Positions 46,516-52,823 of a stretch of 64,000 bases of DNA are shown piece by piece. Origin of the DNA: Phycisphaerales bacterium. Lineage in GTDB: Bacteria; Planctomycetota; Phycisphaerae; Phycisphaerales; SM1A02. The stretch lies in contig JABABS010000026.1 of NCBI GenBank assembly GCA_014238125.1, forward strand, positions 1-64,000. The letters run 5' to 3'. The position numbers and the translations under genes are program-made. The notes under the pieces were generated by a model. The model was not told the origin of the DNA, did not search any database, and saw only the letters and a list, made by a program, of their open reading frames with translations. The stretch's first letter is position 1, and every line of letters begins with the position of its first letter.

Positions 46516-48192
46516 ATGTGGCGATTATTAGCATTATGTCTGCTTGTTCTCCAGGCCTGTGACTCTGGATTTCAAGCTATTGATCACCGGGTTGAAGCCT
46601 TGTTGGTGGAGGCAAACGAGTCTCTTGGTGATGATTCTGTCCTCCCACGTACTGTTGATTGGTCTACTCTGGCGTCCTCTTCACCAGAAAACCCCTTGCC
46701 AGCAACAAATAATCCGCTTATTGACGAGCTCGCCTTGGTACCGTCGATCAAAATTGATAGTAAAACAGTTGGAAAAAAACTCGACGCTGCCGCACTAGAG
46801 CTTGAAGAGAATGGAATATTACTAACATTGGAAGAGTCGCTGGTGTGGTCAACTAAGCATGCACAAGGATACCGCTTTGCCGAATATGACTATCTCACCA
46901 CCACGCTCTCGTTGCTTAGTGAATTACATTTATGGGGACCAAGGTTTTTCGAAAGCATAAGCGCAACAACAAGCGCAGATTCTACCGGTGGTTTTTATGA
47001 TACATCCCTAAACGTGGTTAACGATTTCGAAATTACACATCGGCTTCCATACGGCGGGTCGGTTTCGGCAACTGCGTTAACAAATTTTGCTGACACATTA
47101 CATGCCGCCACATCAAGTAACACCAAAGGAACCACTGTTGGTTTGGCGCTGGAATTGCCTTTGCTTCGGGGGTCTGGAACAGTTGCCAGAGAAACACTTA
47201 TCCAATCACAACGAAATCTCATATATGGTGCTCGCACATTTGAACGATTTCGAAGAACTTTTTTTAGATCCATTGCAGGAGATTATTTAAATCTTGTTGT
47301 ACAACGACAATCTCTTGCAAACGCGCAACGCGGGGTCGAGTCTTTGCGCCAACTTGCGAGTAGACAAAGGGCACTATATGAATCAGGAAGAACTCGGTTA
47401 TATGATTCTGCCGATGCAGAAAACCAAGCACTTGCTTCGGTAGCGAGATTAAGTCAATCTTGGGAACGATATCGCTTAGCGGTTGACCGGTTCAAAGTTA
47501 AAATAGGTTGGCCAATCAAAGAGCTCGTTCGCATTGAACCAACATCCCTTGGCCTTCAACCACTTAAGGTTGATATGAAAACTGCTGTTACAAAGGCGTT
47601 GCAATATCGACTTGATCTTCAAACAGAAGAAAATAAAGTTGGTGATGCGCGTCGCCGTGTTCAGAATGCAAAGAATGGGGTCCTCTCAGATTTAGATTTT
47701 TCGGCTGGTGCTTCATTACCGTCTGAAAACAATGATTTCACAGACTTTGATGGCCGAGAGGTTGATTACTCTGTTGGGATTACATTTAGTGTTCCTCTTG
47801 ACAGAGAAACGGATAGAATTTCACTGCGCAAGCAACAGATCTTGCTTGAGCGTGCAAAAAGATCGCTTCGTACTTCAAAAGAATCTATTGCAATTGAAGT
47901 TCGCTCTTCACTTCGCAACATTGAGGTGTACCAGTTCACGCTTGATCTACAAGAAAGAAATGTTGAAATTGCACAACTTGGTCTTAATTCAATCAATGCC
48001 GACCCTGACCGTGTTTCGGTATTAGATCAAACAAGGGCTATTTCAGAATTACAAAGCGCGCAAGACGCAAGGGATAGTGCTAGGCGGGACCTAGAATTGT
48101 CCATTGTTGATTTTTTATTGCAAGCCGGACAACTTCGAATTCAACAAAATGGAAACATGTACCCAATTGGTACACTAAATCATAATTTATGA
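46516..48192 (+). CDS. TolC-like outer-membrane efflux lipoprotein
   Basis: Lipobox LVLQACDSG; two long coiled-coil halves typical of OEP family. Confidence 0.85.
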   Translation: MWRLLALCLLVLQACDSGFQAIDHRVEALLVEANESLGDDSVLPRTVDWSTLASSSPENPLPATNNPLIDELALVPSIKIDSKTVGKKLDAAALELEENGILLTLEESLVWSTKHAQGYRFAEYDYLTTTLSLLSELHLWGPRFFESISATTSADSTGGFYDTSLNVVNDFEITHRLPYGGSVSATALTNFADTLHAATSSNTKGTTVGLALELPLLRGSGTVARETLIQSQRNLIYGARTFERFRRTFFRSIAGDYLNLVVQRQSLANAQRGVESLRQLASRQRALYESGRTRLYDSADAENQALASVARLSQSWERYRLAVDRFKVKIGWPIKELVRIEPTSLGLQPLKVDMKTAVTKALQYRLDLQTEENKVGDARRRVQNAKNGVLSDLDFSAGASLPSENNDFTDFDGREVDYSVGITFSVPLDRETDRISLRKQQILLERAKRSLRTSKESIAIEVRSSLRNIEVYQFTLDLQERNVEIAQLGLNSINADPDRVSVLDQTRAISELQSAQDARDSARRDLELSIVDFLLQAGQLRIQQNGNMYPIGTLNHNL

Positions 48193-49724
48193 ATATATTC
48201 AAAAGTCGATTACAATCTATTCCCATGAGACGCGGTGTTTCTATTTCAGCAATTCTTTTATTATGTGTTGCTGTAATTGTTGTCATCGTTTGGGCCATTC
48301 CAACGGGTGGTTCTTCGGACAAGGGTTCACTTGGCGCGGGTGCTTTGTATGAGGTTGTGCGTGGTAGTTTTGAGATAACTGTCCCAACCTCTGGTGAACT
48401 TTCAGCCTTAGAACAGGTGAATATATACAACTCGCTTGAATCAAATGCTGTCATTATTGAACTGGTCGACGAGGGTTCTAGGGTAGAGGCTGGTGATGTT
48501 CTTCTTCGCCTCAATGACGAAACAATACAAAACGCAATTAGAAGCGCAGAAGATGGTGTAACAACCAGTGTAAACACTTTGGATGGGTCTACTGCAAACC
48601 TAATTGTTTTGAATAAAAAGAGAGATTCAGAATTAGCGATAAAGCAACTCGCCGTTGACCTTGCCGTGCTTGCCTTGCAATCGTGGGAAAGGGGTGAGGT
48701 AGTGGCAAGAAAGCAATCGCTTAACCTTGCTGTACAAACTGCGGAGAAAGACTTCACAAGACTTTCTGGGAAATTTAAGTCGTCCTTAAAACTATATGAA
48801 CAAGAATTTTTAAGTAAAGACGAACTTGATAGAGATGAAATTGCTCTTTTGAAAGCTGATGCACAATTAAAAAAAGCGCTCCTTGATGTCGATGTTTACA
48901 ATAATTACACATTTAAACAAGATAAACAAAAAAAAGAATCGGATCTTCAACAAGCAAAAGACGAATTAGAACGAGCTGTAGAACGACTCGCTTCTGAAAT
49001 TCGAGGCGCCGAGTCAAACGTGCTTGCTGCACAAAAAAAACTTGCGAACAAACAAGAGGGTCTTCAAAAACTTGAGGATCAATTAGAAATGTGTGTTGTA
49101 ACATCACCGGCAAGCGGCATGGTGGTGTATGCATCTAGCCTGAGGGAAGAAAGACAGCGTGACGGGGAACCAATTAAAATTGGGAAAAAATTATATCGAA
49201 ATGAACTGTGTATGATTATTCCAAACACAGAAATCATGGTTGCAGAGGTGAAGGTCAATGAAGCTCTCAGTGGACTTATTAAAGATGGTCAACAGGCTTC
49301 AGTTATTTGTGATGCTTTTCCAGACGCTTTGTTTAAGGGTAGGGTGGTTTCAGTTGGCGTCCTTGCCTCTGGTGGTGGTTGGAGAGATCCAAACAGGCGG
49401 GATTACACTATTAAGATACAACTGACTGGAGAAAATGTTGTTGGGCTTAAACCATCAATGCGTTGCTCTGCAGAAATATTAGTGGGTGTTGCTGAGAACC
49501 AACTCTTTGTTCCCATACATGCAATACACAGAAAAGGGGGGACGGTTTGGGTTTGGTTACAAAAAGGTGGTGGGTTTGAGCAACGCGCGGTCACGGTTGG
49601 TCGGTTTAGTGAATCGTTTACGGTTATTGAGGATGGACTAGTTGAAGGAGATGTCATACTTCTTCGAGAGCCGCCCCAGGGAATGGTGACGGGGACAATT
49701 TCTAATTCTAATGAGGAACAATAA
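48189..49724 (+). CDS. HlyD/MacA-like membrane-fusion (periplasmic adaptor) protein
   Basis: N-terminal TM, VPTSGELSALEQVNIYNSLESNAVIIELVDEGSRVEAGDVLLRLND, long coiled coil, barrel domain with GLKPSMRCSAEI. Confidence 0.88.
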   Translation: MNIFKSRLQSIPMRRGVSISAILLLCVAVIVVIVWAIPTGGSSDKGSLGAGALYEVVRGSFEITVPTSGELSALEQVNIYNSLESNAVIIELVDEGSRVEAGDVLLRLNDETIQNAIRSAEDGVTTSVNTLDGSTANLIVLNKKRDSELAIKQLAVDLAVLALQSWERGEVVARKQSLNLAVQTAEKDFTRLSGKFKSSLKLYEQEFLSKDELDRDEIALLKADAQLKKALLDVDVYNNYTFKQDKQKKESDLQQAKDELERAVERLASEIRGAESNVLAAQKKLANKQEGLQKLEDQLEMCVVTSPASGMVVYASSLREERQRDGEPIKIGKKLYRNELCMIIPNTEIMVAEVKVNEALSGLIKDGQQASVICDAFPDALFKGRVVSVGVLASGGGWRDPNRRDYTIKIQLTGENVVGLKPSMRCSAEILVGVAENQLFVPIHAIHRKGGTVWVWLQKGGGFEQRAVTVGRFSESFTVIEDGLVEGDVILLREPPQGMVTGTISNSNEEQ

Positions 49725-50299
49725 TGGTCCCTAAAAAAATTGTTGTTGGAGTCACTGGTGCATCTGGAGCACCTTACGCCGTAAGGGTTGTACAACTGCT
49801 TATTGAGTATGGAGCACAGGTGCACCTCGCCGTTTCTACAATGGGCCGAAGGTTGTTGTTTGAAGAATCAAATATCAAAACTTTGTGTGCGGAGCAATTT
49901 AAAGTTGATGCACAATTTCTTGTTATCCACAATGACAATGATCTTGGTTCCTCAATCGCTTCTGGAAGTTTTTTGCACAACGGAATGATTATTGTTCCAT
50001 GTTCAAGTAATAGTGTTGGTGCGATTGCGAGTGGTTTAACAAACACTTTGGTTCAACGCGCAGCGGCGGTCACTATTAAAGAAAACAGGCAATTAGTTCT
50101 TGCTCACAGAGAAACACCTATTAGTGCTATTGATGTAGAAAATCTCACAAAACTCTCGAGGGCGGGGGTGACAATTGCACCTTTATCACCTGGGTTTTAT
50201 ATGCAGCCGAAAACAATTGATGATTTGGTTGATTTTATGGCAGGTAAACTTGTTGATCTTGTGGGAATACATCACGATTTGCCGGTTCGATGGTGCTAA
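49724..50299 (+). CDS. ubiX: Flavin prenyltransferase UbiX
   Basis: KIVVGVTGASGAPYAVRVVQLL, IASGSFLHNGMIIVPCSSNSVGAIASGLTNTLVQRAAAVTIKENRQLVLAHRETPIS. Confidence 0.94.
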   Translation: MVPKKIVVGVTGASGAPYAVRVVQLLIEYGAQVHLAVSTMGRRLLFEESNIKTLCAEQFKVDAQFLVIHNDNDLGSSIASGSFLHNGMIIVPCSSNSVGAIASGLTNTLVQRAAAVTIKENRQLVLAHRETPISAIDVENLTKLSRAGVTIAPLSPGFYMQPKTIDDLVDFMAGKLVDLVGIHHDLPVRWC

Positions 50300-50325: not shown

Positions 50326-50832
50326 ATGAAATATCTACTCACGCTTATCGTTATATCATTCCTGTCGTGCTGCTCGCCAATCGCAACCTATCCGCCAGTT
50401 GAGGTGAGCACCGCTGTTAGTTTTTCTAATTCCTCTTACGAGCCCGTTCCAACAATTTTGGTCACGACTATTGAATACGCACACAATCATTATGGTGGTA
50501 TGGAAACTGTTGTGTACAACCTTCCAGAGGGAGTGTTGGGTGAAACATATGACATTGTGTCTGCAAGAGTTTCCGACTCAGAACCACTTCAAAACGAAGG
50601 TGAACAGGCGTATCACATCACCGAATTACGTGTTCGGGGATTAAGGGCAGAAGCGGATATTATTTTTCCACGTGCTGGCGGCGGATACGAAACAGCAACA
50701 TTGTATTTATCTAAATCATTCTCTAATCCGTGGCAAGTAAACCGTGAACGAATTTGGTTAATTCCAGTTACACAGGCGCCCGCGCCAAATTATGTTGCTC
50801 CAGAACAAACCGCTATTGTTGATACGGAATGA
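50326..50832 (+). CDS. Hypothetical lipoprotein
   Basis: Lipobox FLSCCSP; overlaps next gene by 4 nt. Confidence 0.6.
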   Translation: MKYLLTLIVISFLSCCSPIATYPPVEVSTAVSFSNSSYEPVPTILVTTIEYAHNHYGGMETVVYNLPEGVLGETYDIVSARVSDSEPLQNEGEQAYHITELRVRGLRAEADIIFPRAGGGYETATLYLSKSFSNPWQVNRERIWLIPVTQAPAPNYVAPEQTAIVDTE

Positions 50833-51272
50833 AGTTTGAACAAGCGTGGCTTGATGCTGCCATTGTAGAAGCAGAAAAATCTTGGAGCGAGGGAGGCATT
50901 CCAATCGGTTCCACGCTTGTTGATGGGGGTGGTTCGATAGTTTCTTGCGGTCACAACATGCGGGTTCAAAACGGCGATCCGACCGCGCATGCAGAGGTTG
51001 TGTGTATTAGAAATGCGGGGAGAAGAAGGGATTGGAAATCTCTCACGCTTGTTTCAACACTAAGTCCTTGTATTATGTGTACTGGCACAACCCTCCTTTT
51101 TGGCATTCCACGCGTGATTATTGGAGAAAATGAAAATTTTCTTGGCGCAGAAGAACTTTTATGTTCGAATGGTGTTGAGATAGAGGTTATTCATGATGTT
51201 CGTTGTGTTGCGTTGATGCAACGGCTTATAAACGAAAAACCTGATTTGTGGGCCGAAGATATTGGCTTATAA
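50829..51272 (+). CDS. Cytosine/nucleoside deaminase, yeast FCY1-like
   Basis: GGIPIGSTLVDGGGSIVSCGHNMRVQNGDPTAHAEVVCIRNAGRRRDW...LSPCIMCTGTTLLFGIPRVIIGENENFLG. Confidence 0.88.
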   Translation: MKFEQAWLDAAIVEAEKSWSEGGIPIGSTLVDGGGSIVSCGHNMRVQNGDPTAHAEVVCIRNAGRRRDWKSLTLVSTLSPCIMCTGTTLLFGIPRVIIGENENFLGAEELLCSNGVEIEVIHDVRCVALMQRLINEKPDLWAEDIGL

Positions 51273-51289
51273 AAAAAGGAGGTGCACTG

Positions 51290-51421
51290 ATGAAACGACC
51301 AGTTACACCAAAAAGATCACAAACAGATAGGCCGCGTATTACTTCGCGCGCATCTATCAAGGTTAGGCGGCCAGCGTCAAACACAGCAAAAGCAACAAGA
51401 CCTACTTGCTCTACGCGTTAA
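51290..51421 (+). CDS. Putative 43-aa very basic small protein
   Basis: ATG preceded by AAAAAAAGGAGGTGCACTG; MKRPVTPKRSQTDRPRITSRASIKVRRPASNTAKATRPTCSTR stop; below the ORF track size cutoff. Confidence 0.55.
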   Translation: MKRPVTPKRSQTDRPRITSRASIKVRRPASNTAKATRPTCSTR

Positions 51422-51540: not shown

Positions 51541-52722
51541 TTAATCGCGCTCAAGCAGCATGGAAACAGCGTTGCCACCACCGAGACACAAACTCACAAC
51601 GCCTCGTTTTACGTCAAGTCTACGCATTTGATGAATCAATGTTACGAGAACTCTCGCACCCGAACCGCCAATTGGGTGACCAAGTGCAATGCCGCCACCA
51701 CACACATTCACCTTTGTTTGGTCAAGTCCAAGGTGTGTCAAATTTTGTAACACTTGCACGGCAAATGCCTCGTTAATTTCAAACAGGTCAATATCTGAAA
51801 CCGTAAGGTTGTTTCGTTCTAGTAGCGAAGCTATGCCCTTTCCTGGTGCAGTAAAAATTTCTTTTGGATCAACGCCTTGTGTGTTGTAATCAACAATGCG
51901 TGCAAAAACTTCGCCTGCTGTGTCTGGTGAAGCGACAATGACCGCTGCACCACCATCAGAAATTTGCGAGGCGTTTCCTGCAGTCACGGTGCCTTCTTTT
52001 GCAAATGCTGGTCGTAATTTTCCAAGTGATTCGGCAGACGAATCAGCGCGAACCCCTTCGTCTTGTGTGACATCCGCACGTTGTTTTACCTGCTTGGCTT
52101 CAAAAGTAATTTGTTCATCATTAAACCAACCTTGGTTTATTGCGTGTGCCGCCCGTTGGTGAGATTGAGCTGAATACGCGTCTTGCGCTTCACGTGAAAT
52201 ATTAAACTCTTCTGCCGTCCACTCGGCAGCTGATCCCATTCCCCAGTTTTCAAAAGGACAAGTGAGACCATCGTGTTGCATGTGGTCAACGAGTTTTCCC
52301 TCTCCAAATTTTATTCCACTTCGAATATGTGCAAGGTGGGGAGAACTTGACATGTTTTCCATGCCACCGGCAACAACTATTTTTGTATCTCCAGCCTTGA
52401 TTGATTGTGCCGCCTGAATGACTGATTGTAAACCACTGCCACAAACTTTATTAACTGTAACGGCAGAAAGAGTGGTTGGTAAACCGGCTTTTAATCCCGC
52501 CTGCCGAGATGGATTTTGTCCCACACCAGCCTGTAACACACAGCCCATTACACACTCGTCAATTGCCGCTGGATCAACACCAGAATCTTCAACGGCTGCT
52601 TGAATGGCCCATGATCCAATTTCAGGGGATGAAACCCGAGAAAGTCCACCTAAAAAACGGCCAACAACGGTACGGCGGGCTGCAAGAACTATGGGTTGAT
52701 TTGATTTATTTGTGGTTGTCAT
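51541..52722 (-). CDS. Acetyl-CoA C-acetyltransferase (thiolase)
   Basis: VNKVCGSGLQSVIQAAQSI, GGMENMSSSPHL, NEAFAVQVLQNL, GGGIALGHPIGGSGARVLVTL, VVSLCLGGGNAVSML. Confidence 0.95.
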   Translation of the reverse strand: MTTTNKSNQPIVLAARRTVVGRFLGGLSRVSSPEIGSWAIQAAVEDSGVDPAAIDECVMGCVLQAGVGQNPSRQAGLKAGLPTTLSAVTVNKVCGSGLQSVIQAAQSIKAGDTKIVVAGGMENMSSSPHLAHIRSGIKFGEGKLVDHMQHDGLTCPFENWGMGSAAEWTAEEFNISREAQDAYSAQSHQRAAHAINQGWFNDEQITFEAKQVKQRADVTQDEGVRADSSAESLGKLRPAFAKEGTVTAGNASQISDGGAAVIVASPDTAGEVFARIVDYNTQGVDPKEIFTAPGKGIASLLERNNLTVSDIDLFEINEAFAVQVLQNLTHLGLDQTKVNVCGGGIALGHPIGGSGARVLVTLIHQMRRLDVKRGVVSLCLGGGNAVSMLLERD

Positions 52723-52823
52723 TTGTTTGTGCCTTATTTTCTGAGGTGGGTAGAATATATTTTCTGTAACCCGTTGCAAGGGTACATATTCTATCTAAAC
52801 ACCCTAGGGTCATGTAAAACATA

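What the first reader, a model, noticed from the sequence alone, without database searches (positions are those of the whole stretch)
51273..51421. Overlooked 43-aa highly basic small protein with a near-ideal Shine-Dalgarno
Directly after the deaminase, AAAAAAAGGAGGTGCACTG leads into ATG and a clean 43-codon ORF: MKRPVTPKRSQTDRPRITSRASIKVRRPASNTAKATRPTCSTR. It has 13 Lys/Arg versus one Asp and is Thr/Ser/Pro rich, with no hydrophobic core. It is below the 60-aa cutoff of the supplied track. It could be a nucleic-acid- or ribosome-binding microprotein, or an antimicrobial-like peptide.
Basis: partly seen in the sequence, partly recalled or inferred. Interest (0 to 1): 0.6.

Follow-up and report, generated by a model that had tools for sequence, protein, structure and literature searches.

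The report
Genus-specific conserved 43-residue basic microprotein
A tiny, strongly positively charged 43-residue protein encoded just after a deaminase gene is real: every one of the 13 held species of this marine planctomycete genus keeps it in the same place under selection on its protein sequence. No relative is known elsewhere, and its job, probably gripping RNA such as the ribosome's, remains to be shown.

Summary
ORF 51290-51421 (+) starts 17 nt after the deaminase stop, behind AAAGGAGGTG, and encodes 43 aa with 13 Lys/Arg and 1 Asp. It is a gene, not chance: the same ORF follows the deaminase in 13 of 13 held genomes of the genus (marine Phycisphaerales MAGs, ~2 Mb). In 11 it is exactly 43 aa; in 2 it is a diverged 41-aa form whose ATG overlaps the deaminase stop. 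Twelve residues are invariant, including four Arg-Pro pairs. Selection acts on the protein: dN/dS is 0.04-0.10 in most close pairs, third codon positions change most, and amino-acid differences lie below neutral simulation (p<=0.02 in all eight pairs). No conserved RNA structure was predicted. No convincing relative was found outside the genus (181 family and ~300 class genomes), nor in Pfam, NCBIfam, PHROGs, PDB sequences, phages or plasmids. AlphaFold predicts no secondary structure. bL34 and bS21 are encoded elsewhere. Best guess for function: a disordered cytosolic peptide that binds RNA, most likely as a lineage-specific ribosome-associated protein, inferred from composition and precedent only. 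Nucleoid binding and a deaminase partner remain open; an antimicrobial role is poorly supported. It is a genuine new orphan family of an already recognised kind.

The parts
51290..51421 (+). ORF43: 43-aa basic, Arg-Pro-repeated microprotein gene (stop included)
   Evidence: Conserved in 13/13 genus genomes, dN/dS 0.04-0.10 in most close pairs
51275..51286 (+). Shine-Dalgarno region (within AAAAAAGGAGGTGC) of ORF43
   Evidence: Sequence; GGAGG or GGAG kept in most relatives; replaced by an ATGA stop-start overlap in G007 and G010; weak in G005 and G012
50829..51272 (+). Deaminase gene (PF00383, cytidine/deoxycytidylate deaminase zinc-binding region), immediate upstream neighbour in all 13 genomes
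50326..50832 (+). 168-aa putative lipoprotein (SCC lipobox-like N-terminus), overlaps the deaminase start by 4 nt; same block
   Evidence: no Pfam or NCBIfam match
49724..50299 (+). UbiX-family flavin prenyltransferase gene, same-strand gene of the block
48189..49724 (+). HlyD/RND-type periplasmic adaptor gene, same-strand gene of the block
51541..52779 (-). Acetyl-CoA C-acyltransferase (thiolase) gene, convergent, downstream boundary of the block

Best explanation
ORF43 is a translated, cytosolic, intrinsically disordered microprotein, the last gene of a tight same-strand block (HlyD adaptor, UbiX, lipoprotein, deaminase, ORF43), born or acquired at the base of this genus. Shown: the gene, its start, its conservation and selection on its protein sequence. 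Inferred: its ~+12 charge and four fixed Arg-Pro pairs spaced 10-13 residues apart let it lie extended along RNA, most likely rRNA, as a lineage-specific ribosome-associated protein (comparable in kind to E. coli Sra or microsporidian msL1/msL2). The gene's reality is about 0.95 likely; the stated confidence is for the whole mechanism.
For: Gene reality: 13/13 genomes, same place; dN/dS 0.04-0.10 in most close pairs (G007-G010); amino-acid changes below neutral expectation (p<=0.003 in six pairs, p=0.005 and 0.018 in two others) and third positions changing most in seven of eight pairs; only the zero frame is stop-free in all 11 equal-length genes. Nucleic-acid binding: K+R 11-13 of 41-43 residues, D+E 0-1, aromatic residues 0-1, and exactly four RP in every member; invariant M1 K2 R3 P4 K8 Q11 R14 P15 R27 P28 R37 P38; AlphaFold shows no secondary structure, pTM 0.12. 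Precedent: msL1/msL2, a small positively charged unfolded protein inferred to have been captured by rRNA (PMC10764239); Sra on stationary-phase ribosomes (PMC9959377).
Against: No sequence relationship to any ribosomal protein, Pfam or NCBIfam family or PDB chain. It does not lie in a ribosomal operon. Basic disordered composition does not separate RNA from DNA or from an acidic protein partner. Nothing shows that it is expressed.
Confidence: 0.4

Rival explanations
1. Nucleoid-associated DNA-binding microprotein: basic Arg-Pro segments, and a TPKR element resembling the S/TPKK minor-groove motif, sit in DNA grooves like a minimal HMGA/AT-hook-type protein.
For: One S/T-P-K/R-K/R element in 10 of 13 members; very basic and predicted unfolded. 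AT-hook consensus TPKRPRGRPKK (PMC11354804) shares TPKR and RP elements.
Against: The AT-hook GRP core is absent in all 13; the TPKR element is lost in G003, G007 and G010. No known nucleoid family matched.
Confidence: 0.2
2. Small partner of the neighbouring deaminase: ORF43 binds the acidic enzyme or recruits it to RNA or nucleotide substrate, made by translational coupling from the same mRNA.
For: Always directly downstream, 14-20 nt gap or ATGA overlap. Genus deaminases are slightly more acidic on average (-4.9 against -3.4).
Against: The charge difference is small and the ranges overlap. The deaminase is common outside the genus without ORF43. Adjacency is part of a seven-gene syntenic block, so 13 genomes are not 13 independent co-occurrences.
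Confidence: 0.2
3. Antimicrobial or bacteriocin-like cationic, proline-rich peptide.
For: Cationic with repeated Arg-Pro, superficially like insect proline-rich peptides (own knowledge, not tested here).
Against: No leader or signal sequence, no hydrophobic face; 13/13 vertical conservation with strong purifying selection and nearly fixed length; no phage match and no meaningful plasmid match.
Confidence: 0.04
4. Not a protein gene: chance ORF, or a conserved RNA/3' end of the deaminase mRNA.
For: Short; no independent expression evidence; one minus-strand frame is also fairly open.
Against: Codon-level selection in the zero frame; no Rfam match; RNAalifold predicts zero conserved pairs; the minus-strand open length varies 30-43 codons in that frame; no terminator-like hairpin.
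Confidence: 0.03

Closest known systems
E. coli Sra (stationary-phase ribosome-associated protein)
   Same: Ribosome-bound small protein outside the core set (PMC9959377); from own knowledge also about 45 aa and basic, with restricted distribution
   Different: No sequence relation detected; ribosome binding of ORF43 untested
Microsporidian msL1/msL2
   Same: Small, positively charged, predicted-disordered, lineage-specific protein inferred to be of de novo origin (PMC10764239)
   Different: Eukaryotic, 72 aa, structure solved on ribosomes; no sequence relation found in PDB search
bL34 (Ribosomal_L34, PF00468)
   Same: Similar length, highly basic, no hydrophobic core
   Different: ORF43 does not match the family; a true bL34 is encoded elsewhere in all 13 genomes
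AT-hook / S/TPKK minor-groove peptides (HMGA, histone H1)
   Same: Basic, Pro-rich, unfolded; TPKR-type element in most members
   Different: GRP core absent in every member

Membership tests
Protein-coding small gene (microprotein) | Reading frame conserved in relatives | tested here: met
   13/13 genus genomes, 11 at exactly 43 aa
Protein-coding small gene (microprotein) | Purifying selection on protein sequence | tested here: met
   dN/dS 0.04-0.10 in most close pairs (0.32 for G003-G012); neutral simulation p<=0.02 in all 8 pairs
Protein-coding small gene (microprotein) | Translation observed | not testable with these tools
   No Ribo-seq or proteomics available
bL34 ribosomal protein | Match to PF00468 | tested here: not met
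   No Pfam match for any member; bL34 found elsewhere in the genomes
bS21 ribosomal protein | Match to PF01165 | tested here: not met
   No Pfam match; bS21 found elsewhere in 12/13 genomes
Ribosome-associated small protein | Physical association with the ribosome | not testable with these tools
   Inferred from charge and predicted disorder only
AT-hook protein | GRP core flanked by basic residues | tested here: not met
   0 GRP in 13 members; definition from PMC11354804
Antimicrobial peptide / bacteriocin | Growth inhibition of other cells | not testable with these tools
   No secretion leader visible in the sequence; activity untested

The most novel reading that the evidence does not exclude
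ORF43 is a new ribosomal or ribosome-associated protein restricted to one marine planctomycete genus, a bacterial case of a recently born unfolded basic peptide that became a fixed component of the translation machinery.
Probability: 0.25. Interest if true: 0.65.

Novelty: new member of a known kind. Interest (0 to 1): 0.38.

Why it matters
Many proposed short ORFs do not withstand comparison with relatives; this one does, with nearly fixed length, twelve invariant residues and strong purifying selection. If it proves ribosome- or nucleoid-bound, it would be a datable example of how a very short disordered peptide becomes fixed in core machinery.

Tried and rejected
Weak family/class hits of the profile (G182, G158, G129, G022, G193, G200, G094, G227; best E 1.2e-4) were read: the loci show no MKRP-type ORF, several hits appear antisense to longer coding frames (e.g. 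an ABC-type ATPase in L132), and all were judged chance matches. A search with the diverged G007 form found only the genus. Small basic ORFs behind the deaminase outside the genus: none with MKRP. RNA element: no Rfam match, no consensus fold. Mobile origin: no phage match and only an E=9 plasmid match under a transposase; the viral-contig scan could not be run because the protein is too short or too little conserved in one stretch. bL34/bS21 substitute: rejected. Deaminase acidity as sign of a partner: small, overlapping difference, inconclusive. The deaminase dN/dS of G007-G010 is invalid (ends not aligned) and was not used.

Full report
What is there. The window lies in a ~2.07-Mb Phycisphaerales-like genome (G000, contig C5). 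Named close relatives are Phycisphaerae/Planctomycetota MAGs such as SI047_bin83 and NIOZ-UU92, which the isolate names suggest are marine. After the stop of a PF00383 deaminase (50829-51272) comes AAAAAAGGAGGTGCACTG and an ATG at 51290 opening a 43-codon ORF that ends at 51421. A longer GTG start exists on paper (57 aa), but all relatives start at MKRP.

Is it a gene? The protein was searched in 61 genomes and in all 13 held genomes of the genus. Reading the DNA downstream of each deaminase shows the ORF in 13 of 13. Eleven are exactly 43 aa. G007 and G010 carry a 41-aa form (MKRPVKVKQPNRPK...RRP...SRP...) whose ATG overlaps the deaminase stop as ATGA; a single-sequence search misses these two. 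Twelve columns are invariant: M1 K2 R3 P4 K8 Q11 R14 P15 R27 P28 R37 P38. Every member has exactly four RP pairs, 11-13 K/R and 0-1 D/E.

Selection. dN/dS is 0.10 (G000-G011), 0.06 (G000-G002), 0.10 (G009-G001) and 0.04 (G007-G010); it is higher, 0.32, for G003-G012. Placing the observed substitutions at random gives more amino-acid changes than seen (e.g. 13.2 expected against 5 observed for G000-G011), p<=0.003 in six pairs and p=0.005 and 0.018 in two more. The pairs share sequences, so these p-values are not independent. About half of such neutral versions would hold a stop in most pairs. Only the zero frame is free of stops in all 11 equal-length genes. The opposite strand is not consistently open, no Rfam family matches and RNAalifold finds no conserved pair. 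The constraint is on the protein.

Distribution. A profile of the 13 found nothing convincing in 181 genomes of the family or 298 of the class. The weak hits were read and judged chance, several of them antisense to longer frames. The deaminase itself is widespread, but outside the genus it is not followed by such an ORF. The genes HlyD adaptor - UbiX - lipoprotein - deaminase - ORF43 - thiolase(-) - FBPase keep their order across the genus as far as the contigs reach, while around five deaminases tested outside the genus none of these neighbours was found. The block and ORF43 therefore appear to belong to the stem of this genus, and adjacency to the deaminase is probably one inherited event, not repeated evidence of a functional link. 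Very diverged homologs could be missed by sequence search.

What it probably does. It has no signal peptide-like or hydrophobic stretch and AlphaFold gives no secondary structure (mean pLDDT 64, pTM 0.12). Such a peptide most likely works by binding something acidic. No Pfam, NCBIfam or PDB relative was found (PHROGs gave one chance-level match). RNA, most likely rRNA, is my first choice (about 0.4), by analogy with lineage-specific ribosome-associated proteins (PMC10764239; PMC9959377). It is not a relocated bL34 or bS21, as these are encoded elsewhere. DNA binding is possible, but the AT-hook core is missing. A deaminase partner is possible; genus deaminases are only slightly more acidic than others. 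An antimicrobial role has little for it. None of these functions is demonstrated.

Verdict. A real, overlooked, genus-specific microprotein family; observation confirmed, function inferred only. It is a new member of an already recognised kind (lineage-restricted basic small proteins).

Noticed in passing
window 50326-50832: 168-aa putative lipoprotein with no Pfam or NCBIfam match; it is among the faster-diverging genes of the genus-specific block (46-88% identity) and overlaps the deaminase start by 4 nt.
   Followed up: partly
G007 and G010 (L126, L127): Two genomes use an ATGA stop-start overlap instead of a Shine-Dalgarno and have a 41-aa, strongly diverged form of ORF43.
   Followed up: yes
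G000:C23:1849-2010 and G000:C1:132673-132828: The window's genome shows two bS21 loci while the other genus members with a match show one; could be a paralog or binning contamination (5.91% estimated).
   Followed up: no
G027:C5:58525-71435: Several full and partial copies of the same deaminase lie within about 13 kb in one family member.
   Followed up: no
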